DNA of 20,565 nt from a virus, in IMG/VR virus record IMGVR_UViG_3300042522_001002, positions 1-20,565 of that record, one strand, 5' to 3'. A program made the translations under genes and the position numbers. Under the pieces are notes generated by a model, which ran no database searches, was not told the origin of the DNA, and worked only from the letters and a program-made list of their open reading frames with translations. Each line of letters opens with the position of its first letter. Position 1 is the first letter of the stretch. Shown one piece after another: positions 6,687 through 20,565 of this stretch.

Positions 6687-7418
6687 ATGGCTCGCTACAC
6701 TTTATTCCCTGGAACTGGAGACGCGCAGATCGACGGTTACCTGGCACAGGATGTCGACTACGTAGGCATTGATCCCACCATTCACTGTGTCCAGTGGTAC
6801 GATACCATCGGACAGATTGAATACGTTGGCGATGTGATGACCGGCGCCAAACCTCAAAATGAGGACATCACAGACATCACCCCATATCTTCCTTACATCA
6901 CCAGCGCTCAGGCTATCATCGACGCCTACCTGAATCCCCAGATCTTCTACTCCACTAGCGATTCTACGCTGTTTAACGGCTCTACGGTTCCTTTGGGGAA
7001 CGAGATCGCTATCACCACTGTTGGTGGCATCCCACCGGCGACAACAACAGATTTGGTCCCTCCCACTCCGGAGGACTTCCAAACTCTCTACTGGTTTAAC
7101 GACAGTGAGTGGGTTGTCTCAGGTGTGAACCCGAATCTGAATCTGGCTGCCGCTCAGGCTAGTCTCATCACTCTGATCCAGACCTCGGCCACCGAGCAGG
7201 CTGATCTTCAGGCCCGAATCTACTCGATGTACCAACTGAGCATTGAGGCCTCGCCGGGAACACTTCCCACCGCGGATTATGCCGGTATCGACCTGGACAC
7301 CTACCAGGCATACATCGACGGCGAAGTGAGCGCCATGACGGCCACAGTGAACGCCGCCACCACAGTGCCCCAGCTCTACAGCTTCGATTGGCGTGTTGAG
7401 GGTGACCCCAACGCCTAA
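6687..7418 (+). CDS. Last protein of the fibre cassette, possible fibre accessory protein
   Basis: A 243-residue acidic protein starting MARYTLFPGTGDAQIDGYLA, then IHCVQWYDTIGQIEYVGDV, a motif I associate with uncharacterised cyanophage tail-region proteins. A central Pro/Thr-rich linker (IPPATTTDLVPPTPEDFQTL) leads into YWFNDSEWVVSGVNPNLNL and a helical C-terminal domain (ASLITLIQTSATEQADLQAR) that ends VPQLYSFDWRVEGDPNA. The C-terminal helical arrangement resembles that of the 1165 product, so the two may be accessory or assembly factors. The gene ends the plus-strand cassette: its TAA lies within the 4-base overlap with the convergent gene on the other strand. Confidence 0.7.
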   Translation: MARYTLFPGTGDAQIDGYLAQDVDYVGIDPTIHCVQWYDTIGQIEYVGDVMTGAKPQNEDITDITPYLPYITSAQAIIDAYLNPQIFYSTSDSTLFNGSTVPLGNEIAITTVGGIPPATTTDLVPPTPEDFQTLYWFNDSEWVVSGVNPNLNLAAAQASLITLIQTSATEQADLQARIYSMYQLSIEASPGTLPTADYAGIDLDTYQAYIDGEVSAMTATVNAATTVPQLYSFDWRVEGDPNA

Positions 7419-8164
7419 AAATCGAGATCGATCTCATCCTCTGCTTGGGGCTTGAACGTCCCGAGCAACTCCACAGGCGTAGCGTATCCCGCTGCGCCTT
7501 TTGATCTATTTGCCTTCGCGCACACCACCGCGAGCCTCGCGTGCTCAAGGTGCCACTCCTTCCACGACTCCCACAGCGCGTCGTCCTTGATCCTCTTCCC
7601 AGTCGGCGGCCCACAGAGTATAATGTCCGCGTACGTCAGCATGTTATGGTTCACCCACTCGTCCGCAAGCTGCGCGAAGGGCTTCCCGTGGTGGTCGATG
7701 TCGACCCTCGTCCCCTTCCTGAGAAGGCGCCCCGTCACCAGGCACTCGATCGGGTAGCTCGTGGTCGCCTTGTAATCACGGAGCTGTTGCTCCACCCCAC
7801 GGCGCATCGCTGCCTTGACGGTGTTGAAATGCTTCTCCTCTAGGGTTGCAGTGGTGGCGATCTTTTTGGTAGGATATAGCGCCTCGATGAGTTTCGCCTT
7901 CGGGACGGGTTGCCTGGAGCCACCACCCTCGAGGGAGATCATCTTCACTCGTCTCCCGCCCGCCATATCGAAGTAGCGGAGATACACCTGCGTGTCGGTT
8001 TTCTGTGCGAGTTTCTCCCACCGCGCCGCGAGTCTGCAAACGCGGAGGATAAAGTCGCGCGGTTCGCCGATGAGGCGGGAATTCGCGCGATTGTTGTCGA
8101 TGATGCGGCCCACCTTCTGAGTGAATTGGCCCTTGTTTAGGCCGAGGGTTTCCTGAGGGGTCAT
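7415..8164 (-). CDS. DUF3223/HNH-like protein with SSB-like acidic tail
   Basis: A 249-residue basic protein and the only minus-strand gene. The central motif C141-LVTG, D155-IDHHG with KPFAQLADEW, followed by WHLEHARLAVVCAKANRSKG (about residues 204-223), matches my memory of DUF3223-type proteins. Its CxxTG...DHH...N..KG pattern is like that of an HNH (His-Me finger) nuclease, although the closing cysteine pairs are incomplete. The N-terminal part (RLIGEPRDFILRVCRLAARW) is helical and basic. It ends AEDEIDLDF, an acidic tail with terminal Phe like those of two or three other DNA proteins here. Role is inferred: nucleic acid binding or cleavage. It converges with the fibre cassette (4-base overlap) and diverges from the 8206 gene. 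Confidence 0.75.
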   Translation of the reverse strand: MTPQETLGLNKGQFTQKVGRIIDNNRANSRLIGEPRDFILRVCRLAARWEKLAQKTDTQVYLRYFDMAGGRRVKMISLEGGGSRQPVPKAKLIEALYPTKKIATTATLEEKHFNTVKAAMRRGVEQQLRDYKATTSYPIECLVTGRLLRKGTRVDIDHHGKPFAQLADEWVNHNMLTYADIILCGPPTGKRIKDDALWESWKEWHLEHARLAVVCAKANRSKGAAGYATPVELLGTFKPQAEDEIDLDF

Positions 8165-8175
8165 GCGGCTACAGT
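8147..8175 (+). promoter_or_regulatory. Putative promoter, GGTTTCCT-N15-TACAGTAGG
   Basis: GGTTTCCT (8147-8154), 15 bases, then TACAGT (8170-8175) followed by AGG. The same arrangement, GGTTTCCT-N15-TACAAT, lies before the gene at 18814. TACAGT is an acceptable sigma70 -10 box; the upstream box is not a good TTGACA. It would start transcription of the 8206-11483 block near 8182. The upstream box falls within the first codons of the minus-strand gene. Confidence 0.4.
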
Positions 8176-8185
8176 AGGTCTGTAG
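8169..8185. promoter_or_regulatory. Perfect inverted repeat CTACAG-N5-CTGTAG, candidate operator
   Basis: CTACAG (8169-8174) and CTGTAG (8180-8185) form a perfect 6-bp dyad around TAGGT, in the 41-base gap between divergent genes. The left arm covers the putative -10 box of the plus-strand promoter. Size and placement suit a small repressor's operator, but no regulator gene is visible in the window. Chance occurrence is possible. Confidence 0.35.
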
Positions 8186-8205
8186 AGAGTGTTACCCAAC
8201 ACCAT

Positions 8206-8586
8206 GTGAGCCACAAAACATCCGTGCCCGCCGAGGAACGGATCTACTCACCCGACTACCGTGAGGTGCTCGAACCATTCGAGGACCAACTCGTTGAAGT
8301 CACGGGGAGGATAAAGGAGTTTCGTCAGCACCCCAGAAAGAAACACTTAGAGACCGTTCTCCTTGTCAACCTCATCGTGACACCTATGCCCCTAGGGGAA
8401 TCCGTGCCGCTCACACATCTCTGGTGTTTGACGCGGCACTTGAAACGTTTGGGAATCCCTTTGGAACAGAATGAACGAGTGAAGTTTACGGGCAGTGTGT
8501 ACGCGTATCACCGCCTCGGTGGCAAAAGTAAGTCACGTGGGCTGAAAGGCACACACGACTTTTCAATTCTCCCTGTTGGAGCATGA
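8206..8586 (+). CDS. OB-fold-like small phage protein
   Basis: A 126-residue basic protein. VEVTGRIKEF (residues 30-39), the hydrophobic strand TVLLVNLIV, LTHLWCLTRHLKRLG (69-83) and RVKFTGSVYAYHRL (91-104) give the strand-strand-helix-strand order of an OB-fold nucleic-acid-binding domain. The GLKGTHDFSIL ending resembles small OB-fold-like proteins in other phages. The start is GTG at 8206; the ATG two bases earlier runs straight into TGA. It is the first gene of the DNA-metabolism block and overlaps the next by ATGA. DNA or RNA binding is inferred from fold pattern and neighbours. Confidence 0.65.
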   Translation: MSHKTSVPAEERIYSPDYREVLEPFEDQLVEVTGRIKEFRQHPRKKHLETVLLVNLIVTPMPLGESVPLTHLWCLTRHLKRLGIPLEQNERVKFTGSVYAYHRLGGKSKSRGLKGTHDFSILPVGA

Positions 8587-8882
8587 AGATCGAAATCTAC
8601 GACCTTTGGCGTGGAGGACGCACCGTCTACTATTGGACCCTCTATGATGGCCCCGATGGTATTGACAAAGTGTGTGGCTACGCCACCAGCCTCGAAGAGG
8701 TGGTGACCAAAATACTTGACTGGAGGCAACGCATCGCCAATGACTACATCAACTCCCTCACCCCAGACGAACTCGGCCAAGCAGTCCGCGAAGCAGTGGG
8801 CAGTGGACCGACTGGCGGATCCGAACACGGTGATCATCGACCTGGAGTCGACGGGGATCCTGAGGCAGGACCCGAACACTGA
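8583..8882 (+). CDS. Small unrecognised protein overlapping the exonuclease gene
   Basis: A 99-residue frame. The first 65 or so residues (MKIEIYDLWRGGRTVYYWTL, DGIDKVCGYATSLEEVVTKI, LDWRQRIANDYINSL) look like a genuine small alpha/beta protein. The last 35 (SGPTGGSEHGDHRPGVDGD) look like an out-of-frame reading of the exonuclease gene. ATG at 8583 overlaps the previous stop by ATGA, which supports the start. The C-terminal part shares about 143 bases with the exonuclease frame. Either the overlap is real, or the protein once ended earlier and has read on to this stop. Function unknown. Confidence 0.55.
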   Translation: MKIEIYDLWRGGRTVYYWTLYDGPDGIDKVCGYATSLEEVVTKILDWRQRIANDYINSLTPDELGQAVREAVGSGPTGGSEHGDHRPGVDGDPEAGPEH

Positions 8883-9366
8883 GATCGTCCAGTTGAGCGT
8901 CATCAACACCGCTGGCCGTCCCATCCTCACCATGATGCTGAAACCGGATCGTCCCATGGGCGAGGAGGTTCAGGCCATTCACGGCATCACCAACGAGATG
9001 GTGCAGGATAAGCCGTTTTTCCTTCAGGTGGCCAAGGTCATCAGCGCATACCTCGAGGGCAAGCACGTCATCGCCTACAACGCGGACTTCGACATCGCCC
9101 TGCTGATGCACATGTTCGACAAGTACCAGGAGCCTCGACCGAAGCTGGCCGCCGCCTCGTGCGCCATGGATCAGTACTCGGCGTGGGTCGGCGAGTGGTC
9201 GAAGAAAAAGAATGACGTGAAGTGGCAGAAGCTGCCGAATCTAAGCGGCATGGGGAGCCACGACGCTCTCTCCGACTGCATCTCCACACTGAAGGTGATG
9301 CAGAAGATGGCCGGCCTCTTCGACGAGGCTACAGAGAACGCAGATCTCATCGAACTGGACTTTTGA
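8740..9366 (+). CDS. DnaQ-like DEDDh 3'-5' exonuclease
   Basis: With ATG at 8740 the protein has 208 residues; a TTG at 8716 would add eight, but the ATG fits family length better. GGAGG at 8722-8726 lies 13 bases upstream. The DEDDh motifs are visible: Exo I D34-L-E36-STG, Exo II NADFD with D118, and Exo III H174-DALS-D179. IHGITNEMV at 80-88 is the usual DnaQ-family segment. The Ser/Thr/Lys/Gln-rich N-terminal 20 residues overlap the upstream gene. It probably trims 3' ends, as a proofreading subunit or an independent repair nuclease. The C-terminus NADLIELDF is an acidic, Phe-ending tail like that of the ssDNA-binding protein. It sits between small unknown genes and ThyX. Confidence 0.85.
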   Translation: MTTSTPSPQTNSAKQSAKQWAVDRLADPNTVIIDLESTGILRQDPNTEIVQLSVINTAGRPILTMMLKPDRPMGEEVQAIHGITNEMVQDKPFFLQVAKVISAYLEGKHVIAYNADFDIALLMHMFDKYQEPRPKLAAASCAMDQYSAWVGEWSKKKNDVKWQKLPNLSGMGSHDALSDCISTLKVMQKMAGLFDEATENADLIELDF

Positions 9367-9367
9367 C

Positions 9368-9709
9368 ATGACCCAAACCAAATTCGTCTTCAGTTACACC
9401 GAACTCAGTGATTTCAGCCATCCGACTGAGATCACGATGGAGATGCCCGAGCGCGTCATTGATGAGATGTGCGAGTACTTCCAGCGGTTTTTGACCGCCG
9501 CAGGCTATATCTTCGATGAGGGTGAGACTATTCGGTGTGTGCCTCGTAAGATCGACACCCCCGATTATCAGGGTCGTCTCAACGATATACTTTTCAACAC
9601 CTCCGACGGTTTCTATCCTTACACTTCTTCCGACCCTAAGGACCACATCCCTGTTGACTTCAATAGCGGTGTCCGTGGCGGTATGGCCGACGACATTATC
9701 AAATTCTGA
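9368..9709 (+). CDS. Unrecognised small phage protein of the DNA block
   Basis: A 113-residue acidic protein: MTQTKFVFSYTELSDFSH at the start, EITMEMPERVIDEMCEYFQR forming a likely helix, and FLTAAGYIFDEGETI. The order of beta-hairpin then helix then F..AAGY.FD is familiar from small uncharacterised proteins in cyanophages and other T4-like phages, but no function is known to me. It ends GGMADDIIKF, an acidic-hydrophobic peptide closing with Phe, loosely like SSB-Ct. It lies one base after the exonuclease stop and its TGA overlaps the ThyX ATG (TGATG), so the three are probably translated as a coupled set. Confidence 0.65.
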   Translation: MTQTKFVFSYTELSDFSHPTEITMEMPERVIDEMCEYFQRFLTAAGYIFDEGETIRCVPRKIDTPDYQGRLNDILFNTSDGFYPYTSSDPKDHIPVDFNSGVRGGMADDIIKF

Positions 9710-10503
9710 TGGAAAACACCAACCCCTGGCTCATCGAAGGCTCCAGCAAAGCGCGACTGGTGAGCCACACCCCCGATCCTGAGGCCATAATGGGCTACAT
9801 CGCTCGTGTGACCTCCAAGGATCAGACGAATCCCAATGTCGATCGTCTCCTCAGATACTGCGCCAAACACGGTCACTGGTCGGTGTTCGAGCAGGCGAGC
9901 ATGACGGTGGAGGTGGTGACCCCCCTTGCCATTGCCGTGCAGCTTCTGCGTCATCGAAGTTTTTGCTTTCAGCAATTCTCCGGACGGTACGAGGACCAGC
10001 AGGAGATGAAGAACCACACCGACGGACTGTCGGCGCACTTCAACATGTTCTACGTGCCGGAGGAAGCGCGTGTCCAGGATCCTAAAAACCGACAGAACAG
10101 CATACCAGCTGGTCACGGAGACCTCACCGATGAGATGTGGGGCACTATGTCCACCGCTTACACGGTCGCGACTCAGTGCTACAAGGATCTTCTCGACCGT
10201 GGAATCGCTAAGGAGGTCGCAAGATTCGTTCTCCCGCAGGGCGTTTATAGCCGTCTGTACGTTACAGGTTCTTGCCGCAGTTGGATCCATTACATTGGGG
10301 TGCGTGATGACGAGGGTGTCGCTCAGTTCGAGCACGTCGAGCTCGCCCGAGCCTGTAAGTCGGTCTTCGCAAATGTCTTCCCAACGGTTTACGGCTCCCT
10401 AGACTGGAGCTACAATAAGGGTGTTGACGAAACCGAGCGCCTCAGGAAGGAAGTCATTGAGCTTCGTTCCGAGATCGCCGTACTCAAAGCGAAATCAGAA
10501 TGA
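9709..10503 (+). CDS. thyX: Flavin-dependent thymidylate synthase ThyX
   Basis: A 264-residue protein. The ThyX signature RHR-x7-S is present as RHRSFCFQQFSGRY, with R81-H82-R83 and S91; the usual Asn of the motif is Gln, a variant common in phage enzymes as I recall. The second conserved region, ARFVLPQGVYSRLYVTGSCR then SWIHYIGVR, is also clear. The enzyme methylates dUMP to dTMP using methylenetetrahydrofolate, with FAD and NADPH, in the host cytoplasm, raising dTTP for phage DNA synthesis. Cyanophages often carry it. The last 25 residues (TERLRKEVIELRSEIAVLKA) form a predicted heptad-like helix beyond the usual ThyX core. It is coupled to the 5' nuclease gene by ATGA. Confidence 0.95.
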   Translation: MENTNPWLIEGSSKARLVSHTPDPEAIMGYIARVTSKDQTNPNVDRLLRYCAKHGHWSVFEQASMTVEVVTPLAIAVQLLRHRSFCFQQFSGRYEDQQEMKNHTDGLSAHFNMFYVPEEARVQDPKNRQNSIPAGHGDLTDEMWGTMSTAYTVATQCYKDLLDRGIAKEVARFVLPQGVYSRLYVTGSCRSWIHYIGVRDDEGVAQFEHVELARACKSVFANVFPTVYGSLDWSYNKGVDETERLRKEVIELRSEIAVLKAKSE

Positions 10504-11483
10504 CAGTCAGGGCTCTCCCCACGCGGACAAAACTCGAGGAAGTGTTTGAGCTGGAGCGGGAGCCCGCACCACTCGTCGTCGTCGACTTTCACGTGTACGC
10601 ACACGACATCATGAGGTGGTACACCGACAAGGTGGCCAAGCTCGTGTCCGAGGAGGTGGCGAAGAAGCTCCTTCGTGCCGCGTGGGCCGCAAAAATCCAA
10701 CGTGGTCCGGACATGTTACCGCGCCACTCCTACCGCTACGTCATCGTCGCCGACTCACGTTATCGCGACACCGGCAACTACTGGCGTGACAAGTTCATGA
10801 CAGAGTCTGAGGTTGTCTCCCAAGCTTGGGACAACTACGCTGAGGCGCAGAACGTCCCACGAGAGACGCTGAAGACGAGTTACAAGGGCACTCGAGGTGA
10901 GAAGACGGACGACTTCTGGCTGGTGTTCAACGCTGGAATGGATTACTGTCAGGAGTATTACGGTGTCTTCACACACGAGGGTTACGAGGCTGACGACTTC
11001 GCGGGTGCTATCTATCGAGCTTCCCGAGATAGGACCGAGGACATCGTCCACCGACGGCAGATCCTCCTCTCCACTCTCGATAGGGACTGGTCCCAGCTCG
11101 TTGACGAGTCGCATCGAGTTTACTTCGCGAACACGCGTGTTCCCTTCCCCGCTGAGAAGATCCAGGAACGTCTTGTCGGTGAACTTGGCGTCAAGGAGCA
11201 CACAGCTCACAAGATGGGGTTTGATCTGGACCACCCTAAGAATCTCGCTGAGTACAAGGTTCTTCATGGTGACATGGGCGATAACCTTCCACCCGGCTCG
11301 CCAAAGTGCCTCTTCGACCTGTGTGACGCCAACCCTGATTGGAACATCGAGACTGTCTTTCAGGATTACGGAACCCTTCTGGAGACACTCAACGATCCCA
11401 ACGCCAACTCCCGACCCGACCACTTCGACTCCTCACTGCGGGCCTTCGCCACAGTAGGCATCGAGGCACCATTCAAGCTGTAG
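10500..11483 (+). CDS. FEN/RNase H-family 5'-3' nuclease
   Basis: A 327-residue nuclease of the PIN/FEN superfamily, to which T4 RNase H, T5 D15 and the Pol I 5' nuclease belong. Motifs in order: VVDFHVYAH with D29; SYKGTRG at 127-133 (the YKxxR signature); GYEADD at 161-166; LSTLDRDWSQLV with D194 and D196; and HGDMGDNLPPG at 256-266 with D258 and D261, the helix-hairpin-helix entry usually written GDxSDNIPG. All acidic metal ligands I can place are retained. The likely role is removal of RNA primers and flaps during lagging-strand synthesis. It overlaps thyX by four bases and ends the DNA-metabolism block; the next gene starts 19 bases after its TAG. Confidence 0.88.
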   Translation: MTVRALPTRTKLEEVFELEREPAPLVVVDFHVYAHDIMRWYTDKVAKLVSEEVAKKLLRAAWAAKIQRGPDMLPRHSYRYVIVADSRYRDTGNYWRDKFMTESEVVSQAWDNYAEAQNVPRETLKTSYKGTRGEKTDDFWLVFNAGMDYCQEYYGVFTHEGYEADDFAGAIYRASRDRTEDIVHRRQILLSTLDRDWSQLVDESHRVYFANTRVPFPAEKIQERLVGELGVKEHTAHKMGFDLDHPKNLAEYKVLHGDMGDNLPPGSPKCLFDLCDANPDWNIETVFQDYGTLLETLNDPNANSRPDHFDSSLRAFATVGIEAPFKL

Positions 11484-11495
11484 GGTAAAAACACC
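11481..11495 (+). repeat. TAGGGTAAAAACACC motif, copy 4
   Basis: This is identical over 15 bases to 4666-4680 and again starts on the TAG stop of the preceding gene. Here it marks the junction between the DNA-metabolism block and the baseplate block and ends 7 bases before the ATG at 11503. Confidence 0.45.
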
Positions 11496-11502
11496 ATACG
11501 AA

Positions 11503-12156
11503 ATGTCGTGTGGTATGCACAGCCTCGACAATCAATACCAGGTTCAGGCACTGCGCGCCGTCCAGACCCTACTACAGGGTTCGGGCGGCGTCTTTTCGCG
11601 TATTCCTGAATCCTACGCCAACCACCTCGCTCACGACTACAGCGACGGTTCGGTATCACTACTGAGTAAGATCAACACTTTTGAGTTCAGTCCGGAACTG
11701 GAGGACTGGCAGATCGGCGAAGCGATCGAAACGCTCTCGAAAGCGGATCCCGCCGACTGGCCTTCCCTCGACGACATCGAGTCGATTGATCTCGACCGAG
11801 TCTACCACGGCGACCGGGGAGTCCCCCGCTTCGACGACTTCAGCGACTACGCCGAGGTGTCGGACATGGAGTACGGCAACAAGGTGGCGCGCATGTTCAA
11901 GTCGGCCATCGAGTCCGTCTTCGGACAGGAGGTTGATCACGTGGGCACCTCGAAGGGTGAACCGCCAGGGAAAAACAATCAATACTGTAAGGACGGCGAC
12001 TCCTTCCGTGGCACATTCGAGCACGATGAGAAGAAGTTCGAGTTCGAACTGTGTAAGGACGAGAACGACGAGTGGCACCTTTCCTATCGTCTATCAAAAG
12101 ACTCCCGCGACAAACTGTTCAAGCCAGCGGCCGAAACGAAAGGGAAGAAGAAGTAA
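11503..12156 (+). CDS. Unrecognised protein at the start of the baseplate block
   Basis: A 217-residue strongly acidic protein with a Lys-rich end (PAAETKGKKK). The N-terminal part (SLDNQYQVQALRAVQTLLQG) is helical. The middle is rich in Asp/Ser and aromatic residues (DYSDGSVSLLSKINTFEFSP), and the C-terminal third (DSFRGTFEHDEKKFEFELCK, DEWHLSYRLS) looks like a small beta-sheet domain. Two ATGs are available, 11503 and 11515; neither has a strong Shine-Dalgarno site and the first is used here. Its TAA overlaps the next ATG (TAATG), tying it to the tail genes. I do not recognise a family; a baseplate or tail-assembly role is inferred from position only. Confidence 0.6.
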   Translation: MSCGMHSLDNQYQVQALRAVQTLLQGSGGVFSRIPESYANHLAHDYSDGSVSLLSKINTFEFSPELEDWQIGEAIETLSKADPADWPSLDDIESIDLDRVYHGDRGVPRFDDFSDYAEVSDMEYGNKVARMFKSAIESVFGQEVDHVGTSKGEPPGKNNQYCKDGDSFRGTFEHDEKKFEFELCKDENDEWHLSYRLSKDSRDKLFKPAAETKGKKK

Positions 12157-12860
12157 TGGCCCGACGTTTCGACTCCATCAGTGGTGGACTGGTTGACACG
12201 ATCGTCGCCAGTGTAGGCAGCTCCGTCTCCGAGACCGTCCAGAGCGCTGTGAGTGGTAAGCAGGCGAGCTTCAGCATCAATTCCGTGCTGGGAGGCGCCG
12301 TTCAAGCCTCGTCCGGCTACGCACTGAATGCGGGCCAGAACTACATCCTCAATCAGCTTGGCTCGAGCCTCGGCAACACGCAATTCGGTGAACTCTCCAC
12401 TTCCATCGTCACACAGGTGGCGGCGGCGGGTCTGAGCCAGGCGACGAGTTTCATCAGCCAAGCGCTCCCCAATCCGTTTATCGGCGGGGGTAGCAGCAAT
12501 GTCACCACAGCGGGGTTGGCCACCATAGCTTCCAAGTCCAGCATCAGCATTCCGGACAGTGTCGTCTCCACACTCGAGGACGCGGACTACGGCGGGATTG
12601 CTTACACGGTTCAAGACATCACCTTTACGCTCACCCCGGCCGAAGCAGGCGCCCAAGCTCAACAACCACCTCAAACTGGGCCTAAAATCCCTCTTGATGT
12701 AGCCTTCAATCCAAACGTCGATCTGAGCAATAGCGCGATCAAGGCGTTCAAAGGGAACGTAGCACTTAGTGGTCCGGCTACAGGATTTGATTTCAATAGG
12801 ACGGCGGACCTCGTTAAGGTTGCTCCGCCGACCACCAAGCTCGCGCAGCCTCTCTGGTGA
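12156..12860 (+). CDS. Unrecognised baseplate/tail-region protein
   Basis: The start is taken at ATG 12156, overlapping the upstream TAA (TAATG), which gives 234 residues beginning MARRFDSISGGLVDTIVASV. A longer frame reaches back to 12072 but would lie wholly inside the preceding gene. The first 130 residues are Ser/Gly/Ala/Gln-rich and amphipathic (VTQVAAAGLSQATSFISQAL), followed by PFIGGGSSN and a C-terminal part with YTVQDITFTLTPAEAG and a Gln/Pro linker. The composition suits a structural or chaperone-like tail protein. No family is recognised. Its TGA overlaps the next ATG (TGATG), so it belongs to the same translational unit as the gpU-like protein and tape measure. Confidence 0.6.
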   Translation: MARRFDSISGGLVDTIVASVGSSVSETVQSAVSGKQASFSINSVLGGAVQASSGYALNAGQNYILNQLGSSLGNTQFGELSTSIVTQVAAAGLSQATSFISQALPNPFIGGGSSNVTTAGLATIASKSSISIPDSVVSTLEDADYGGIAYTVQDITFTLTPAEAGAQAQQPPQTGPKIPLDVAFNPNVDLSNSAIKAFKGNVALSGPATGFDFNRTADLVKVAPPTTKLAQPLW

Positions 12861-13687
12861 TGGCAGACTACTCCTCATTTAACAATGCGGCGATCGGTAG
12901 CTACTTCAATAGCACCGGTTTGGGCAATGTCGCCTTTGACCCAAAGGTGGCTGACGCGCTTAAGAACACCGACTTTAGTAAGTACTCGGTGGGTGGTGTT
13001 CCCGACTTCGGTGGTGACGTCCTGAGTTCAAACCCCGTCTCCGCAAATTCCGACGCGTGGGTATTTATCACGGCTCCGGGCTCCGTCCAGTGGAACGTCA
13101 ACGCCAATGTCGAACGGGTCGACATCTTCGGCACCAACACACCACCAGTGGTCGCCTCCTCACGTGGGATGCGGGACCTCCAACTGACAGAGGCATTGAT
13201 CGAGGGGTTCACCCTGGGCAAATCCGTTCAGAAGGAGCTCGATAACCTCGAGAATCTGATGAATGTGGAGGTGAATAGCGAGAGCGGCTTCGTGTCGGTC
13301 CCCGTCTACAACGTGTCGGCGGGTGGCAAATCCTACGGCCTCTACGTCATCGAGTCGATAGACGTCGAGGAGCAGATGCGTGACCTTCAGGGTAGGGCGA
13401 CACGTGCTATGGTGGGTGTAGCCCTCAAGCAGGTTCCGAAATACCAGGTAGGGAGCGGTATCGATCAAGCGGGATCTTCCACAGCCGGTCAAGCTCTCGA
13501 TTCCTCCAAGTTCACTCAGGCGGACAAGCAAGCGGCGAACGTCGCCAAAGATAAGGGGAACACACCGTCAAACGCCACCGCCCAGGCCGCGGCGAACTCA
13601 CGTACTGGAGGAGGCGCGGCTGGGAACAATCAGCCTGTGGCGCCAATTGACCCCACTCGAAGACAGCAACAGTCCACAGGCAGGTGA
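12860..13687 (+). CDS. Baseplate/tail protein with gpU-like region
   Basis: 275 residues from ATG at 12860 (a GTG codon lies directly before it). Residues 67-100 (WVFITAPGSVQWNVNANVER, VDIFGTNTPPVV) and 145-193 (VSVPVYNVSAGGKSYGLYVI, ESIDVEEQMRDLQGRATRAM, then VGVALKQVP) resemble the layout of tail proteins such as P2 gpU and the proteins next to the tape measure in contractile injection systems, where the core reads YVI.SI....D..G....+.V.LK. The C-terminal 70 residues are low-complexity, Ala/Gln/Asn-rich. Location right before the tape measure supports a baseplate or tube-end role. The family assignment is tentative. Confidence 0.55.
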   Translation: MADYSSFNNAAIGSYFNSTGLGNVAFDPKVADALKNTDFSKYSVGGVPDFGGDVLSSNPVSANSDAWVFITAPGSVQWNVNANVERVDIFGTNTPPVVASSRGMRDLQLTEALIEGFTLGKSVQKELDNLENLMNVEVNSESGFVSVPVYNVSAGGKSYGLYVIESIDVEEQMRDLQGRATRAMVGVALKQVPKYQVGSGIDQAGSSTAGQALDSSKFTQADKQAANVAKDKGNTPSNATAQAAANSRTGGGAAGNNQPVAPIDPTRRQQQSTGR

Positions 13688-13693
13688 TGAAAA

Positions 13694-16600
13694 ATGGCTG
13701 AGAATACGCAAACATTCATACTTGTCGGTGATTTTAAGGATAACATCACCCCAAGTCTGGCGAAGCTTGATCGCCAACTAAACTCGCTGACAAAGAGTTT
13801 CGAGAAGCTCTCCTCCAAACTCAGGCCGATCAGCAAAGAGTTCGGCAATATGGCGGGTGCTGCGGAGAGGATGGCCGACGCGCTGAAGAATCAGCGTGGA
13901 GCCTTCGACTCCAATGTTCGCGCGATGCAGCAGTACCGGCGTGAAGCTGGTAAGGTGAAAGCGGCCAATGATGCCCTCGCTAGAAGTGGTGGTCGTGGTG
14001 GTCGTGGTGGTGGTGTTCCGCCAGGTGGACTACCCCCAGGCGGATTACCGCCAGCGGGCCGAGGTCGTGGTGGACGTGATAGCTTTGCGGCGGCGGCTGG
14101 TGGCTTCGTAGCCGGAGAAGGCCTCGCCAATATGATGACGGGCGCCATCGTGAGGGGTTTCCAGATGGGAACCAACATCATGATGAAGCCGTTCCGCTAC
14201 GGTGCGAACGCTATCGGTGAGAGAATCAAGGACGAGATGTCGGACATCTCCTCCGCTGGTGGCATGTTCGCGGTGGACAAGCGGGATAAGCTCGGTGTGT
14301 TCAAGAGCTTTGACGACGCACGTAACTTCCAGGAGCAACTGAACGCCCGACTGGCGAAGTCCGCCGCCGCACTACCCGGTGAGACCGCCGAGTACGTGCA
14401 ACAGGCGAAAATGATGACCGACTCGATGATGATCGCGTTCGGTAAGAATAAAGAGGGGTTCATGAAGTTCGCCAAGGAACTTGACTCCACTGTCACTAAC
14501 GACCGTGATGCTCTCGGCTTGGTGACTCAGAAGTTCACTGAGAAGGCGGTTCTCCTCGGTAAGGGAAGTGGCGGGAGCAGCGCCTACGGTGTTCCCCAGA
14601 TTCTTGAGATGTTGGTCTCTCAGGAGAAAGTGAATGTTCAGGCGTTCAGACGTTTCAGCGCCTACCAATCCAACCCACTCCTCAAGAATTCACTCGAGGC
14701 GGCGGAAGCCGAGTTGAAAAAGACGGGCGCGAACAGCGCCGAGCGTCTTCGTGTCATTCAGAAGGTGCTTGATCAGGCCGTCCCGAATGACGTGGTGATG
14801 GCCATGCAGAACTCCGCCGATGGTATCTACCAGGCGGTGAAGTCCGCATTTCTTGACCCCGAGGCCGGTCTTTTGGGCTTCGGGAGAAAGCTTGACAAGA
14901 TAAAAGTCGCCGCTCGGGACTCTCTCGGTCGATTCGTGAATGACGCCGGTGAGGTGGTGGAGACTGCGGCCCAAGCGGCTCAGCAGAGCGCGTCACTTTT
15001 CGGCCTGCTTCGGGACATCGTCGGTGGATTCGTCCTCCCCCTCACAGGACTCACCGACATCCTCCCACAGCTGTATGATCCGCTAGCGGGAATTGCCGAT
15101 CAACTTACCGGATTCCGTAATGTAGCTCAGGACTTCTACAAGAACTTTAACGCCTACACCTCGTGGTTTGAGCAGTATTCCGCGGATCTCGATAAAGAGG
15201 GCAATAAGAAGAAGGGCACGATGATTCGTGAGTCGAAGAAGGCACGTGGAGCTCTGGCGTCCATCAATAACCTTCTCGCCGCGTTCGGGGCCATTGATGA
15301 CAGTGAGTTCAAGAAGAACGCTGACGCTCTCAAGAACGTAGACACGAGCAAGCTTGGCGAGATGGCCAAGACGATGTTCGGTCAACTCTTCGACTCCGAC
15401 TTCATGAAGGGGCTAGGTGAGATGATCGGTTCGGTCGTCGGATCCACCATAAAGGCGGTCGGTGACTTCATGGCGGGTGTCAACGATCTTGCCAGTGCCG
15501 GTCCATTCGCGAAGGGACTGCGAGCTGGGTTCCAGAAAGCGAAAGGCGCTCAGGGAATCTCACTGATCTTCTCGAATCTCTTTGGCCTCATCGGAAAAGC
15601 GCTCCTCACCCTATTCCAGTCGGCACCAATGGAGATGGGGATCTTAACCGCGCTCACAGTAGGACTGCCTGTCCTTCAAGGAGCAATCACACAAGGCATG
15701 ATCAAGATGTTCTCCATGGCCGCGGCAGGTATGGGGCTCGGCGGTGCGGCGGGCGCTGGAGGTATGGGCGCCACTATCGCCGGTTGGTTGGGCGCGGTTG
15801 GTCCGGCGCTTGCCACCGTCGCCAAGCTTCTTCCACCAGTCGCCGCGATTCTGGCCTCGATCGTATTCCTGGGAGGCGGCGTTGAGAATACGATGCGCCA
15901 ACTGAAGCAGATCTTCGGAGAGATCGGCCACACACTGTGGGGCTCCATCTCCGGACTCTCCGACGTATTTGGAACCGTATTTGGATTCATAGGCGATCTT
16001 GCTACAGGTATAGGCCGTCTCATCAACATAATCCCTGGGGTCGGTGTCCAGCTCGACCTTCTCAAAGTCGCTTTCACCCCCATCACAGCGGCTCTCCAAG
16101 CCTTCGAACTGGGCATTCTCGGTCTGAATGTTCTCCTCACAAAAGTTCGCTCGTGGCTGACAAATTGGCTTGGAAGTGATGAGGAGAAGAAAGCGAGGTA
16201 CGAAGAGAGTGTCGCTGCTGACATCAAGATGCGCCAGACCCAAGGTAGGCAGAACGCCTACAATGTGTCTATGCAAGGCCCAGATGCTTTGAAGAAAGCG
16301 ATGAGCAGCGCCATCTACGAGCTGAACAACAGTAAGGTACTCAAAGCTTCTCGTAGTGCGGAACTCAAGGCGTTTGTCGCTGAAGCCAAGGCCCAACTTG
16401 CCAAGCCCACACCGGCCGCTCCACCCAAGCCTGGCGCTCCCAAACCCGCAGGAAGTGTACCAGCGGCGGGTGGAGCTCCAGCGGCTCCGACCCAAGTTAC
16501 CATTCCACCGCAGTCCCTGGCGCCAATCACCACCGCCACCAACACCGTCAACACCACCATGACCACGGTGAACTCCTCGACACAGGGAGTTAGGGGTGCA

Positions 16601-17401
16601 GTGAGTGCCGCCGACACTGCAGCGAAGGCCGCAGCAGCGAAGCACACAGCCCAATACACGCAACTCCTCAACGTGATGAATGCGGTCAAGAGCGGTATTA
16701 TCGCGGTCAGCACCAAGATCTCGGGACTGAAGACGAGCATCGACCAGCGGGCCACTCAAGCGAGCTTAGCACAGGTTGTGGCACTGATGCAGTCCGGCAA
16801 GATGAAGGTGCAGGCCGACTTCAATATGCCTGGTGGCCCTCTCGGTGGCGGTCAGGGTGGTCCGGCGATCTTCGGAGCCGCCGCTTCCAAATTCGGTCTG
16901 ACCATGACGAGTGGCTACCGTCCGGGTGACCCAGGCTACCATGGCATCAACCGGGCACGTGATTACTCGAACGGGAACGCGCCCACACCTCAGATGATGA
17001 TGTTCGCGCAGTATCTCGCAAACAATTTCGGAAGTGGCCTCAAGGAGCTGATCTACACCCCACTCGGGTGGAGTATCAAAGATGGCCGAAAGGTCCCGGC
17101 GTATGCCCGTGCGGGACACTACGACCACGTCCACGTGGCGTGGGCCGGAGGCATCAAAAATCCCCGCTTCTTCGATTCCGCGGCGGCGGCGAGACAGTAC
17201 GAGTCGATGTACGCACCGGCCGGAGCCCGCATTCAGACCGCCACTTGGAACTCCGCGGAAGGTAGACTCGGTGGCGGACCCACTACAGTGAATCAAAATA
17301 TCACCATCAGTGGCGCCGATGACCCCCGCCGTCTAGCGGAGATCGTCTTCAACTACGCGGCCCAGGCCGCCGAACGCATCAACAACTCCTCATTCGCATA
17401 A
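13694..17401 (+). CDS. Tail tape measure protein with M15-like peptidase domain
   Basis: At 1235 residues this is the largest gene. N-terminal helices (residues 20-95) precede a Gly/Pro/Arg linker (about 98-128: GGRGGRGGG, PPGGLPPGG). Long helical stretches follow, then hydrophobic segments at about 620-740 (GILTALTVGLPVLQGAITQG; LLPPVAAILASIVFLGG), a Pro/Ala linker near 896-930 and another helical region. Residues 1060-1150 carry TSGYRPGDPGYHGINRARD with H1083-x6-D1090, and HYDHVHVAW with H1142, H1145 and H1147. This is the zinc-binding pattern of M15/VanY-like peptidases, found in other tape measures. Family role: sets tail length, then helps cross the cell envelope; the peptidase would cut peptidoglycan crosslinks. 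ATG at 13694 follows GGTGAT. Confidence 0.9.
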   Translation: MAENTQTFILVGDFKDNITPSLAKLDRQLNSLTKSFEKLSSKLRPISKEFGNMAGAAERMADALKNQRGAFDSNVRAMQQYRREAGKVKAANDALARSGGRGGRGGGVPPGGLPPGGLPPAGRGRGGRDSFAAAAGGFVAGEGLANMMTGAIVRGFQMGTNIMMKPFRYGANAIGERIKDEMSDISSAGGMFAVDKRDKLGVFKSFDDARNFQEQLNARLAKSAAALPGETAEYVQQAKMMTDSMMIAFGKNKEGFMKFAKELDSTVTNDRDALGLVTQKFTEKAVLLGKGSGGSSAYGVPQILEMLVSQEKVNVQAFRRFSAYQSNPLLKNSLEAAEAELKKTGANSAERLRVIQKVLDQAVPNDVVMAMQNSADGIYQAVKSAFLDPEAGLLGFGRKLDKIKVAARDSLGRFVNDAGEVVETAAQAAQQSASLFGLLRDIVGGFVLPLTGLTDILPQLYDPLAGIADQLTGFRNVAQDFYKNFNAYTSWFEQYSADLDKEGNKKKGTMIRESKKARGALASINNLLAAFGAIDDSEFKKNADALKNVDTSKLGEMAKTMFGQLFDSDFMKGLGEMIGSVVGSTIKAVGDFMAGVNDLASAGPFAKGLRAGFQKAKGAQGISLIFSNLFGLIGKALLTLFQSAPMEMGILTALTVGLPVLQGAITQGMIKMFSMAAAGMGLGGAAGAGGMGATIAGWLGAVGPALATVAKLLPPVAAILASIVFLGGGVENTMRQLKQIFGEIGHTLWGSISGLSDVFGTVFGFIGDLATGIGRLINIIPGVGVQLDLLKVAFTPITAALQAFELGILGLNVLLTKVRSWLTNWLGSDEEKKARYEESVAADIKMRQTQGRQNAYNVSMQGPDALKKAMSSAIYELNNSKVLKASRSAELKAFVAEAKAQLAKPTPAAPPKPGAPKPAGSVPAAGGAPAAPTQVTIPPQSLAPITTATNTVNTTMTTVNSSTQGVRGAVSAADTAAKAAAAKHTAQYTQLLNVMNAVKSGIIAVSTKISGLKTSIDQRATQASLAQVVALMQSGKMKVQADFNMPGGPLGGGQGGPAIFGAAASKFGLTMTSGYRPGDPGYHGINRARDYSNGNAPTPQMMMFAQYLANNFGSGLKELIYTPLGWSIKDGRKVPAYARAGHYDHVHVAWAGGIKNPRFFDSAAAARQYESMYAPAGARIQTATWNSAEGRLGGGPTTVNQNITISGADDPRRLAEIVFNYAAQAAERINNSSFA

Positions 17402-18720
17402 TGGCAGGCGTTCTCATCAATCCCCAGGTCCAGGTGAAATGGGGATCGCGAAATCTCTCGGCGTACGACCTCGGTGACGGTGTCAAACAGTCCATCGTCT
17501 ACAACACCAACGTCACCCTTCCGGGGAACAGTTGGCCTGAGGGCTCATTCTCGTGGAACCCCACAGGTCCAGCGTTCAAAATATACGAGGAGTGCGTCAC
17601 GAAGGGGAAAGAGGAGGAGATCCTCATCCGTTTCTACTACGTCAACGGCCCGTACGTGATCTTCAAGTTCCAGTACAACGGGTCGAACATCAACTACGGG
17701 ACCGACATGCAGATCGAGGTCCTCCTCACCACGAAGCAGGGACCGAAGAGTTCCGGCGTGAGGGCGTCGGCGATGGCCGACTACACCAAGGGCAAGTTTA
17801 ACGCGAAGGGCAAGGACCTGTACAAGTCCGCGACTGATCTGGCGAAGTCGTTCGGCGAGCCTGTTCCCCTCCTGTGGCAGCAGGCCGCAAAAACCGATGC
17901 GAAGAAGATCTTCCTGGCGTCGTGGCAGTACAAGGATCAGACTTACGGTGCGGAGATCCTCAACATAGCCACACAGGCTGGGCAGAAGGTTCTCCCACTC
18001 AACATCAACAGCGACGGTCAGGCCGCCATCTTCAACCCATTCTCGAAGGAGGGCAAGGACGGGATCGACTCGGTCCAGTTCCCTCCGAAGGCTGGGGAGC
18101 AGATCAAGGCGGAGCAGCGCTACGGCTACCTCCTGGGGCCTGGCATCATCACCACCTTTCAGCGCTCGTTCGAGTATCCCCCTCAGACCCAGGGTCAGGA
18201 TAGTCCCACTCAGCCCACTGGCACTCCCAACCAGAGGCAGCAGCTCCAGTCGCCCGGTGCCACCAACGTGGCCGCTGTGAATCAGCAGCAGCAGGCTGTG
18301 AAAGACGCGCAGAAGGGATCGGTCGTCAACCCATCCTCGCCCACTGTGGTCAAGGGGAAGAAGTTCACGAAGAACAACGAGGGTCCCAAGAATCAGGAGC
18401 TAATGCAGCAGGAGGAGGGTGTCAAACTGCAGGCGCAGATCTTCATGTGCCCCGCCGTCGTCGGAATGAAGCCGCAGGACATCGTCTACATCCCGAGCTT
18501 GAAGATCGGCGACGCCCTCATGGAGGACTACAAGGTGATGTCGGTCACCTACGCCCAGAGTGGCGGGACGATCGGGGTCAGCATTCAGGCCACGAGGACC
18601 CCAGGCCTGAACAAGCCCATGAATGAGGCGGCCGCCAAGAAGTTCATCGAGAGGGCCAACACCCTGAAGACCGTGGAGGACTGGACCCGCTACGCCTGGT
18701 CCGATCGGATGGGCGGCTAG
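17401..18720 (+). CDS. Baseplate hub protein candidate (gpD/gp27-like)
   Basis: A 439-residue protein coupled to the tape measure by TAATG. Its N-terminus (VQVKWGSRNLSAYDLGDGVK, residues 10-29) and SFSWNPTG resemble the opening of hub proteins, where a strand pair is followed by a short Asp-rich turn. The C-terminal part (DIVYIPSLKIGDALMEDYKV at about 360-379, then QSGGTIGVSIQATRTPG) looks like the closing beta domain of gpD-type hubs, with the helical end EDWTRYAWSDRMGG. A Gln/Pro/Thr/Asn linker spans about residues 260-325. Gene order (gpU-like, tape measure, hub) matches contractile phages such as P2. It would trimerise below the tube. Codon third positions are strongly G/C here, more than in the fibre genes. 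Confidence 0.6.
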   Translation: MAGVLINPQVQVKWGSRNLSAYDLGDGVKQSIVYNTNVTLPGNSWPEGSFSWNPTGPAFKIYEECVTKGKEEEILIRFYYVNGPYVIFKFQYNGSNINYGTDMQIEVLLTTKQGPKSSGVRASAMADYTKGKFNAKGKDLYKSATDLAKSFGEPVPLLWQQAAKTDAKKIFLASWQYKDQTYGAEILNIATQAGQKVLPLNINSDGQAAIFNPFSKEGKDGIDSVQFPPKAGEQIKAEQRYGYLLGPGIITTFQRSFEYPPQTQGQDSPTQPTGTPNQRQQLQSPGATNVAAVNQQQQAVKDAQKGSVVNPSSPTVVKGKKFTKNNEGPKNQELMQQEEGVKLQAQIFMCPAVVGMKPQDIVYIPSLKIGDALMEDYKVMSVTYAQSGGTIGVSIQATRTPGLNKPMNEAAAKKFIERANTLKTVEDWTRYAWSDRMGG

Positions 18721-18748
18721 GTTTCCTAAGGCTGAGGTGTGGTACAAT
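18720..18748 (+). promoter_or_regulatory. Putative promoter, GGTTTCCT-N15-TACAATATGG
   Basis: GGTTTCCT (18720-18727), 15 bases, TACAAT (18743-18748). A TG at 18740-18741 makes an extended -10 (TGGTACAAT), so a sigma70-type polymerase could use it without a good -35. The same box pair and spacing occurs at 8147-8175. Transcription would start near 18755, at the foot of a leader hairpin. Confidence 0.6.
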
Positions 18749-18755
18749 ATGGATG

Positions 18756-18791
18756 TTCCCGCTCGGAAAGATGTCCGAGACTTCACGGGAA
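18756..18791 (+). promoter_or_regulatory. Leader hairpin before ssDNA-binding protein gene, candidate autoregulatory operator
   Basis: TTCCCG (18756-18761) pairs with CGGGAA (18786-18791), and CTCGG (18762-18766) with CCGAG (18775-18779). This gives 11 base pairs with an 8-base loop (AAAGATGT) and a 6-base bulge ACTTCA (18780-18785). CTTCA in the bulge is complementary to TGAAG at 18815-18819, across the start codon. The region before the ATG has no clear Shine-Dalgarno sequence. T4 gene 32 mRNA carries a 5' pseudoknot to which its product binds to shut off translation; a similar role is inferred here. Confidence 0.5.
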
Positions 18792-18813
18792 TACGCACAC
18801 AGCTTACTTGGTT

Positions 18814-19773
18814 ATGAAGACTTTCAAGGTCAACCCCCAACTCGACGACAAGAACCGCGCTCGTCTCGAAGCACGCAGCTATCAGAAAGCGTACACCGAC
18901 GTCCCGAACCGCGCCCTCCCTCCCTCCTATAAGGAGGCACTGAGCGCCATCTACACCGGTCTCACCGGTAACGATCTGCCGGACGAAGGCTCGACCTTCA
19001 CCGTACGCGCCGATGCCAACGGCACTTTCAAACGACTCTACTCCCCCACCGTGTTCTCCACCGAGGACAAGGGTCTCATCATCCGCTGGGGTGACGAGGA
19101 CATCCCCCTGAGTGTCGCCGACGGGAAACTGTCTGCCCTCAACGGTCAAAAGGGTCTGAAGCTGTCCTTCAAGGAGGAAACGGTTGGCAAATACACTGAA
19201 GCGGTGCTGTCCGTGGCCTTCTCGGCCGGTGGCACACTCTTCTCCCTTCCGGTTCCGATCCGCTCCGCGGACTACGAGAACCGAGTCACCAGTGACATCC
19301 TCGATGTCCTCCTGAGTGAGAACCCCGACGCCATCGCGGAACAGGTCGCTGTCGCCAGTGATCCCTCGAAGCGTGGCGAATCCACCGGGGAACGTCTGCA
19401 AGGTCCATTCGTGAAGGTGGCACACCTTCCGCTGGGCGAGTACAAGATCACCCAATGCCGGTCGAAGGACTCGGACTACGGGATGCAGTACTTCCTGCAG
19501 GCGATCGTCAACGAGCCCTTCACCGCTCCGACCCGTACGCAGGTCGATGGTGAGTGGGTGGACACCGAGGTCGAAGTCAGCGACTTCGTCGTGGTCAAAC
19601 CCAACAACGCGCTCAAGAAAGTGCTGGCCGCTGATCCCGAGATCACTCCGGACAAGCCCGCCTTCCTGATCGTGAAAGAGCACGGTGAGTGGAACGGCTT
19701 CCCTACCGCTAAGTGCGTGCTCAAGTGTACAGCATTCGTCAAAGACGACGACAGCTTCGACATCGACTTCTGA
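18814..19773 (+). CDS. Probable ssDNA-binding protein with acidic C-terminal tail
   Basis: 319 residues from ATG at 18814. An upstream GTG at 18739 would place the -10 box and leader hairpin inside the coding region and is rejected. The central part alternates strands and turns as OB-fold proteins do (STFTVRADANGTFKRLYSP, GLIIRWGDEDIPLSV, FVKVAHLPLGEYKITQCRSK). The C-terminus KDDDSFDIDF is an acidic tail with terminal Phe like bacterial SSB (DDDIPF) and T7 gp2.5. No gp32 zinc motif is seen. The role, inferred from tail, regulation and position, is to coat ssDNA in replication and recombination and recruit partners through the tail. It has its own promoter and terminator, so it may be made in large amounts. 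Confidence 0.65.
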   Translation: MKTFKVNPQLDDKNRARLEARSYQKAYTDVPNRALPPSYKEALSAIYTGLTGNDLPDEGSTFTVRADANGTFKRLYSPTVFSTEDKGLIIRWGDEDIPLSVADGKLSALNGQKGLKLSFKEETVGKYTEAVLSVAFSAGGTLFSLPVPIRSADYENRVTSDILDVLLSENPDAIAEQVAVASDPSKRGESTGERLQGPFVKVAHLPLGEYKITQCRSKDSDYGMQYFLQAIVNEPFTAPTRTQVDGEWVDTEVEVSDFVVVKPNNALKKVLAADPEITPDKPAFLIVKEHGEWNGFPTAKCVLKCTAFVKDDDSFDIDF

Positions 19774-19837: not shown

Positions 19838-20565
19838 ATGTCGGATCGTTACAGTGGTGGGCCGCTGAGTGACCCCCAATCTGTAAGCATTATCGCGGAG
19901 GCGAAGGAGCGCAAGCCACGAGGCGAACGCTTCAAGAAGGATAAGAAGAGTGAGGATCGCCCCACAGCCACAGCGCTGTCGGAACTCTACAGTAAGGGCG
20001 TGGCTCTTCTCAAATCGAACTTCTACACCGTGGAACTCTGCGAGGGCGCGGAGCACATCAACCACCGCATCCTCAGGCCCTCGGCACCACCGCCGGTGAA
20101 GGGCATCAATTATCCCGCCAGCTTTCAACCACTTCAGGACATCTCCACCCTCGAGGATTTTGCTCGCATCGAGGCCGTGTTTGACGGCGCCGAGAGTGAG
20201 GTGCGCGACTTCTGGCAGCCACTGTTTCGTCCCAAGGGTGGTGAAAGCGACCTCTTCGCGTTCACCGATCGTCTGCTGAAGATGCGGCGGATCCAGGCCA
20301 ACCAAAATATCCATGAAGTTCTCGACTATGGCCAGACGTTCGACCCAGATGGGTCCCTCACCGGGAACACGCCAGTTCGGAATCCTCGTCTTTGGGTTCC
20401 TGCTCGGAAGTGGTTTGACTCTCGCCTTTACGACGTTGGCCTTGAGGATGTTTTCACCATCTTCCCCCACGCCGAACGGGAACTGCTCAAGCTCATCCTC
20501 GGACGAATTGGCGTTGGGCGAGCGAATCATCTGCCGCCTGGATTCAGTTCTCCCGTAGATCACAC
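19838..20565 (+). CDS. 5' part of an unrecognised large protein, possible replication ATPase
   Basis: An open frame runs from ATG 19838, with GAGGA just upstream, to the right edge with no stop (242 complete codons). The N-terminus is charged (SIIAEAKERKPRGERFKKDK), followed by ATALSELYSKGVALLKSNFY and later WQPLFRPKGGESDLFAFTDR. The last 90 residues (NPRLWVPARKWFDSRLYDVG, AERELLKLILGRIGVGRANH, LPPGF) recall the region just before the P-loop in some phage replication helicases or primase-like ATPases, but the Walker A motif, if any, lies outside the window. Position after the ssDNA-binding protein and terminator fits a replication gene. It is real on coding-like composition and start signal; function is uncertain. 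Confidence 0.7.
   Translation, partial: MSDRYSGGPLSDPQSVSIIAEAKERKPRGERFKKDKKSEDRPTATALSELYSKGVALLKSNFYTVELCEGAEHINHRILRPSAPPPVKGINYPASFQPLQDISTLEDFARIEAVFDGAESEVRDFWQPLFRPKGGESDLFAFTDRLLKMRRIQANQNIHEVLDYGQTFDPDGSLTGNTPVRNPRLWVPARKWFDSRLYDVGLEDVFTIFPHAERELLKLILGRIGVGRANHLPPGFSSPVDH

What the first reader, a model, noticed from the sequence alone, without database searches (positions are those of the whole stretch)
7415..19773. Unrelated DNA-processing proteins share an acidic Phe-ending C-terminal tail
The minus-strand DUF3223/HNH-like protein ends EDEIDLDF (coded near 7418-7441), the DEDDh exonuclease ends NADLIELDF (near 9364), and the probable ssDNA-binding protein ends DDDSFDIDF (near 19770). 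The 9368 gene ends in the looser ADDIIKF. Established knowledge: bacterial SSB (DDDIPF) and T7 gp2.5 and gp4 use such tails to dock partners, and gp2.5 and gp4 tails bind the same polymerase. Inference: this phage uses a common tail code, [I/L/F]-[D/E]-[L/I]-DF, so that several replication or repair proteins compete for one hub such as polymerase or helicase-loader. Two of the three close matches are not SSBs, and one is encoded on the opposite strand, so simple duplication is unlikely.
Basis: partly seen in the sequence, partly recalled or inferred. Interest (0 to 1): 0.75.

Follow-up and report, generated by a model that had tools for sequence, protein, structure and literature searches.

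The report
Shared docking tail on phage DNA proteins
A family of viruses related to known cyanobacterial viruses puts the same short acidic, phenylalanine-ended tag on its DNA-coating protein and on two unrelated DNA-processing proteins, and on almost nothing else, which suggests that all three plug into one socket of the virus's copying machinery.

Summary
The three tails are where stated. In Synechococcus phage S-CBWM1, the nearest named relative, exactly the three orthologues carry the tail, out of 178 CDSs. In viral-contig relatives it is kept by 62/62 HNH-like loci, 31/31 exonuclease loci of 44% identity or more, and 60/60 SSB-like loci with a stop codon (five have one residue after Phe). 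In loci fetched for these genes, 151 of 14,475 distinct ORFs fit the pattern, 150 of them in the three families. The tail is more constrained than the linker before it.

The SSB tail is the old one: it is also in the S-TIM5 clade. HNH homologues there (14/14) lack it, as do 22/22 distant exonuclease loci, so the nucleases probably gained it.

Best reading: a phage-specific docking peptide shared by SSB and two (candidate) nucleases, working like the T7 gp2.5/gp4 tails. The receptor is not identified; the Pol-gamma-like polymerase is my first guess, the DUF5906 primase-helicase second. No beta- or gp45-type clamp was matched. The 'DUF3223' label and the 9368 gene's membership are not supported.

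The parts
7415..8164 (-). HNH-like candidate nuclease, 249 aa, tail EDEIDLDF
   Evidence: AF2 mean pLDDT 86.9, residues 243-249 below 50
7418..7441 (-). coding bases of tail EDEIDLDF
8740..9366 (+). DEDDh 3'-5' exonuclease, tail NADLIELDF (ORF opens at TTG 8716; start at ATG 8740 is my guess)
   Evidence: PF00929 E 1.8e-17; phrog_192 E 5.5e-32; tail
9337..9363 (+). coding bases of tail NADLIELDF
18814..19773 (+). probable ssDNA-binding protein (phrog_25892), 319 aa from ATG 18814, tail DDDSFDIDF (ORF opens at GTG 18739)
   Evidence: phrog_25892 E 1.5e-36; near relatives align from this Met; weak OB-fold matches of residues 206-313; tail
19744..19770 (+). coding bases of tail DDDSFDIDF
19838..20563 (+). 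DNA primase-helicase, N-terminal part only (cut by window end); candidate partner
   Evidence: phrog_25243 E 4.4e-33; DUF5906 in 11 of 12 related records searched

Best explanation
The tail, roughly [E/D]-[I/L/V/F]-x-[L/I]-[D/N]-F-COOH, is a short docking peptide on a flexible C-terminus. It is an old part of this phage family's own ssDNA-binding protein, and in the S-CBWM1-like clade, to which the window belongs, it is also found on a DEDDh exonuclease and on an HNH-like candidate nuclease. All three proteins would dock by the terminal Phe, two alternating hydrophobic side chains and the acidic patch into one pocket on a phage-encoded replication protein, so that SSB and the two nucleases take turns at the same DNA site. 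Shown here: tails, near-exclusivity, conservation, constraint, tailless homologues of the nucleases. Inferred: gain rather than loss, binding, one shared receptor, competition. Receptor guess: the Pol-gamma-like DNA polymerase (about 0.4), the DUF5906 primase-helicase (about 0.25), the SSB's own DNA cleft (about 0.15), other (about 0.2).
For: Nearly exclusive to three families in whole genomes and contigs. Kept in close homologues: HNH-like 62/62 loci, exonuclease 31/31 loci of 44% identity or more, SSB 60/60 with a stop codon. Tail pN/pS is below the linker in all three families: SSB 0.156 vs 0.324, exonuclease 0.219 vs 0.341, HNH-like 0.124 vs 0.317, although both Phe codons and many Leu codons are used. 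HNH-like homologues of the S-TIM5 clade, 14/14, end at the core motif or within ten residues of it, without tail. Distant exonuclease loci, 22/22, lack it, as do three named phages whose match runs on towards the end. SSB tail extends to S-TIM5 (DLNLDF). Tail residues have low confidence (pLDDT under 50) in both models made. T7 precedent: gp2.5 ends DEDGDF and gp4 ends SNDTDF, and gp4 tails bind basic patches on the family-A polymerase gp5 (PMC5997990, PMC12593628, passages). The S-CBWM1 and S-TIM5 polymerases are Pol-gamma-like with a family-A domain; their PF18136 domain was found in 18 of the 20 contigs of 99 kb or more that were searched.
Against: No partner was identified and no complex could be predicted. 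The T7 tails lack the alternating hydrophobic residues. Polymerase and primase-helicase co-occur with the tail, but so may many other genes. PF18136 was missing from 2 of the 20 long contigs (G011, G012) and DUF5906 from G010. The SSB role rests on weak structural matches (best Z 4.9, mean pLDDT 66.7). Four SSB loci and one HNH-like locus have a residue after Phe, so a free C-terminal Phe is not absolute. A-HIS1 keeps only an acidic, Trp-ended end (DDLLSGW). A further kind of protein in a sub-clade ends somewhat alike, so the pattern is not perfectly exclusive. Loss of the tail in the S-TIM5 clade is not excluded.
Confidence: 0.7

Rival explanations
1. Self-inhibiting DNA mimic: each tail lies in its own protein's DNA site and is displaced by DNA, with no common partner.
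For: All three proteins are DNA-processing or candidates for it; the T7 gp2.5 tail competes with ssDNA for its own cleft (Marintcheva 2008 as described in PMC2965674, passage).
Against: Three unrelated proteins would not need one precise pattern, with Phe nearly invariant and fixed hydrophobic spacing; tailless homologues of the HNH-like protein persist.
Confidence: 0.12
2. Mimic of the host SSB tip that recruits host SSB-binding proteins.
For: Acidic residues, hydrophobic residue and terminal Phe resemble SSB-Ct (MDFDDDIPF in E. coli, PMC7913777, passage). Five of 30 cyanobacterial SSB loci end -EF, -NF or similar without Pro (from Synechocystis, Calothrix and Sphaerospermopsis genomes, titles).
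Against: 24 of 30 cyanobacterial SSB loci end [VI]PF; none of 115 distinct phage proteins has Pro before Phe.
Confidence: 0.1
3. Nucleases dock on the SSB itself, their tails replacing the SSB's own tail in its DNA cleft (a special case of the best explanation, counted within it).
For: Would explain why the nucleases share the SSB's tail; the T7 gp2.5 cleft binds its own tail (passage).
Against: No direct evidence; the SSB model gives no confident tail position (residues 311-319 pLDDT below 50).
Confidence: 0.11
4. Tail is a degradation, packaging or other sorting signal rather than a replisome dock.
For: C-terminal tags can serve so (general knowledge).
Against: No annotated structural gene of S-CBWM1 carries it; all three main bearers are DNA-processing or candidates for it.
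Confidence: 0.05

Closest known systems
Phage T7 gp2.5 and gp4 C-terminal tails docking on gp5 DNA polymerase
   Same: Acidic, ends -DF; one code on SSB and on a second replication protein; gp4's partner is a family-A polymerase
   Different: Here the other bearers are an exonuclease and an HNH-like protein; hydrophobic residues at -3 and -5; three bearers; polymerase is Pol-gamma-like; receptor not shown
Bacterial SSB C-terminal tip (SSB-Ct, DDDIPF)
   Same: Acidic tip with hydrophobic residue and terminal Phe on an SSB
   Different: No Pro before Phe in 115 of 115 distinct proteins; here enzymes carry the tip too, whereas in E. coli proteins such as RecO receive it
C-terminal clamp-binding peptides (T4 gp43-type; role recalled)
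   Same: Short C-terminal hydrophobic peptide on a replication protein; T4 gp43 ends ASLDFLFG
   Different: No beta- or gp45-type clamp match in 6 records

Membership tests
Bacterial SSB-Ct tips | Terminal Pro-Phe after acidic run | tested here: not met
   Residue before the Phe is D, N, E, A, K or S, never P, in 115 distinct proteins (one HNH-like row is shifted by an extra residue). Five of 30 host SSB loci also lack the Pro
T7 gp2.5/gp4-type polymerase-docking tails | Acidic C-terminus ending -DF | tested here: met
   Window tails end -LDF, -LDF, -IDF; T7 ends DGDF and DTDF
T7 gp2.5/gp4-type polymerase-docking tails | Binds a family-A DNA polymerase | not testable with these tools
   No complex prediction available; polymerase present in the clade
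T7 gp2.5-like SSBs | OB fold | tested here: inconclusive
   C-terminal domain 206-313 matches OB-fold chains, SSBs at Z up to 4.2 and a HIN domain at 4.9; Foldseek none at E <= 0.001
Sliding-clamp-binding motifs | A phage clamp to bind | tested here: inconclusive
   PF00712 and PF02916: 0 of 6 records, three of them contigs that may be fragments; the PF02916 controls held no phage; a host clamp is not excluded
DEDDh exonucleases (RNase_T) | RNase_T profile | tested here: met
   PF00929 64.8 bits against cut-off 24
DUF3223 | Pfam profile match | tested here: not met
   0 of 30 members listed for DUF3223 at E <= 10 (HMMER's filters drop most matches above about 0.1)
HNH nucleases | His, Asn, His motif in beta-beta-alpha fold | tested here: inconclusive
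   D155, D157, H158, H205, N219 invariant in 30 sequences; no Pfam HNH match; only the N-terminal domain has a clear fold match (2K0M, Z 10.2)

The most novel reading that the evidence does not exclude
A transferable replisome address tag: a phage SSB's docking peptide has been added to two unrelated nucleases (and, in a sub-clade, perhaps in looser form to a fourth protein), making SSB and nucleases interchangeable occupants of one pocket on a Pol-gamma-type replisome that has no recognised clamp.
Probability: 0.5. Interest if true: 0.75.

Novelty: new variant of a known kind. Interest (0 to 1): 0.62.

Why it matters
It gives an unusually clean natural case of one docking peptide shared by unrelated proteins of one replication system, with tailless homologues as built-in controls. 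If the receptor is the Pol-gamma-like polymerase it would show how such a replisome hands DNA between SSB and nucleases, and would tie two uncharacterised families (phrog_25892 and the HNH-like protein) to it.

Tried and rejected
Clamp as hub: no PF00712 or PF02916 match in 6 records. Bacterial-type SSB in these phages: none over the cut-off in 13 records, two weak ones in S-TIM5. Host SSB tail mimicry: 24 of 30 host loci end -VPF/-IPF, five end -EF or -NF, one -PPF. The 9368 gene. DUF3223 label. Fold searches gave no confident whole-protein match for the SSB or the HNH-like protein; of the HNH-like model only residues 1-103 matched clearly (2K0M, Z 10.2). S-CBWM1 metallophosphoesterase ending HIDLDV has no Phe and was not counted.

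Limits of counts. The first regex missed the G018 exonuclease ending DEIDLGF (found). In one search the crude gene filter dropped the G020 HNH-like gene and the G021 SSB; the G023 SSB ends FG. Left out of counts: 6 SSB loci cut by a contig end; the 22 distant exonuclease loci were kept out of the constraint test, and one more distant exonuclease locus without tail (L045) is not in the 53. Many loci are near copies. In one search, of 28 listed rows other than S-CBWM1, 23 matches end at query residue 183-187 of 203, two at 191, one at 197, two at 202 (74 more records were not listed); the exonucleases of three of these longer ones were read and have no tail. The contigs searched were 36 of those fetched, picked by length and clade.

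Literature: ten searches were allowed; 60, 61, 63-65, 69, 89, 90, 106, 107 ran. Nothing in those listings pointed to a description of this tail in these phages; the ten papers that name S-CBWM1 were seen as listing only, and the library holds open-licence papers alone. Passages only were seen of PMC9917605, PMC5686142, PMC5997990, PMC2965674, PMC7913777, PMC3997047 and PMC12593628. Marintcheva 2008 and Ghosh 2009 were seen as titles in reference lists, the former also as described in PMC2965674.

Full report
What is there. The window is a 20,565-base virus record. Its nearest named relative found is Synechococcus phage S-CBWM1: the HNH-like protein is 53% identical, the exonuclease 44%, the SSB-like protein 41%. 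The three tails are as described: EDEIDLDF on the minus-strand gene 7415-8164, NADLIELDF on the exonuclease ending at 9366, DDDSFDIDF on the SSB-like gene ending at 19773. No other ORF of 40 aa or more in the window fits the pattern; two tail-fibre-like genes end in Phe but do not fit (IIDTATF, AIDSTPF).

Chance. In S-CBWM1 the pattern [VILMF]x[VILMF][DENASTG]F at the C-terminus occurs in 3 of 178 CDSs, and these are the three orthologues (ISLDF, INLDF, LDLAF). In S-TIM5 the SSB homologue ends DLNLDF and is the only match among ORFs of 40 aa or more. A mechanical six-frame scan of 11 sequences gave 4,657 ORFs and 27 matches, all of them these genes by place and ending. Over the loci fetched by then, which were chosen because they hold one of these genes, 151 of 14,475 distinct ORFs matched and 150 were in the three families; the other is a 104-aa ORF in L182. 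In eight large contigs the matches were again these families, apart from a 166-aa protein in G008 and two short ORFs in G017 and G023. Against the rate of the same pattern inside the same proteins, 0.41 C-terminal matches were expected among 1,473 crude genes and 23 seen; 21 are in the three families and 2 in one further family.

Conservation. Wider scans of viral contigs gave the following. HNH-like: 62 of 62 loci carry the tail, one with a residue after Phe. Exonuclease: 31 of 53 loci carry it, namely those 44% or more identical; the 22 others (37% or less) do not. SSB: 60 of 66 loci have a stop codon, all 60 carry it, four with Ala or Gly after Phe; six are cut by the contig end. Distinct proteins number 44, 24 and 51, and the last residue is Phe in 43, 24 and 47 of them. 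In pairs 60-97% identical, the ratio of non-synonymous to synonymous change in the last seven residues is lower than in the ten before them in all three families, and also lower than in the rest of the protein, though only just so in the exonuclease (0.219 against 0.230). Synonymous sites are near saturation and pairs are not independent, so only the order of the ratios should be used.

History. The SSB family carries the tail on both sides of the S-TIM5 / S-CBWM1 split. In the siphophage Mic1 a protein that matches the SSB over residues 12-81 (38.6%) ends FNLDW, and the A-HIS1 homologue ends DDLLSGW. The HNH-like protein has homologues in 14 of 15 records searched of the S-TIM5 kind and A-HIS1 (A-HIS1 has none), and all 14 stop at the core motif KG[AS][KR]Y[YF]G or within ten residues of it, without the tail. 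No exonuclease homologue was found in S-TIM5, G021 or G023. Exonucleases of other phages mostly align only to query residue 183-187 of 203 (23 of 28 listed rows); of the longer matches three were read and lack the tail. The simplest reading is that the SSB tail is old and that the nucleases gained it in one clade; loss in the S-TIM5 clade is not excluded.

Who might be the receiver. S-CBWM1 and S-TIM5 polymerases carry the mitochondrial-type exonuclease domain PF18136 and a family-A polymerase domain (in S-CBWM1 the latter scores just under the cut-off there, 34.0 against 34.3 bits). PF18136 was found in 21 of 36 contigs, and in 18 of the 20 that are 99 kb or longer. The neighbouring primase-helicase matches DUF5906 in 11 of 12 records. 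No beta or gp45 clamp was matched in 6 records. Host SSB tips end [VI]PF in 24 of 30 loci fetched from 14 cyanobacterial genomes, -PPF in one, and -EF or -NF in five, whereas Pro before Phe was found in none of 115 distinct phage proteins. A phage-encoded receiver is therefore more likely than the host's SSB-binding proteins, though the five exceptions keep that rival alive. In T7, gp2.5 and gp4 both end -DF and gp4's tail binds basic patches of the family-A polymerase (passages of PMC5997990 and PMC12593628). That analogy makes the polymerase my first guess; it is not shown.

Structures. The SSB model is of middling quality (mean pLDDT 66.7, residues 311-319 under 50); its C-terminal domain resembles OB-fold proteins weakly (best Z 4.9 for a HIN domain, SSBs up to 4.2). 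The HNH-like model is good (mean 86.9, residues 243-249 under 50); its first 103 residues match 2K0M, an uncharacterised Rhodospirillum protein (Z 10.2). The nuclease label rests on invariant D155, D157, H158, H205 and N219 and is an inference. DUF3223 was not matched.

Verdict. The shared-dock reading is the best explanation; receptor and competition remain untested.

Noticed in passing
G008 197449-197949; G010 18040-18543; homologues in G017, G018, G019: A protein of about 167 aa near the primase-helicase ends in an acidic aromatic tail (EVEFSF, EIDVGF, EIEYAY, ERELCY, EVEVGW), a possible fourth, looser bearer; homologues in G004 and S-CBWM1 lack it. No Pfam match for the G008 one.
   Followed up: partly
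L009 3729-5165 (S-CBWM1 gp009): Annotated 'putative SNF2 DNA repair protein' but matches Tet_JBP, the 2-oxoglutarate oxygenase domain (PF12851, E 4.3e-18).
   Followed up: no
L430 9997-10974 (Mic1_07): Hypothetical protein of a Microcystis siphophage with a partial match to the SSB ends NDDGFNLDW: the same pattern with Trp for Phe.
   Followed up: partly
L075, L076, L118, L119, L187: Four SSB loci and one HNH-like locus carry one residue after the Phe, so the free Phe carboxylate may not be essential there.
   Followed up: no
window 9368-9709: Small gene ending ADDIIKF; its C-terminus varies in relatives.
   Followed up: yes
L009 8949-9608 (S-CBWM1 metallophosphoesterase): Ends ELDHIDLDV, resembling the tail without Phe.
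   Followed up: no
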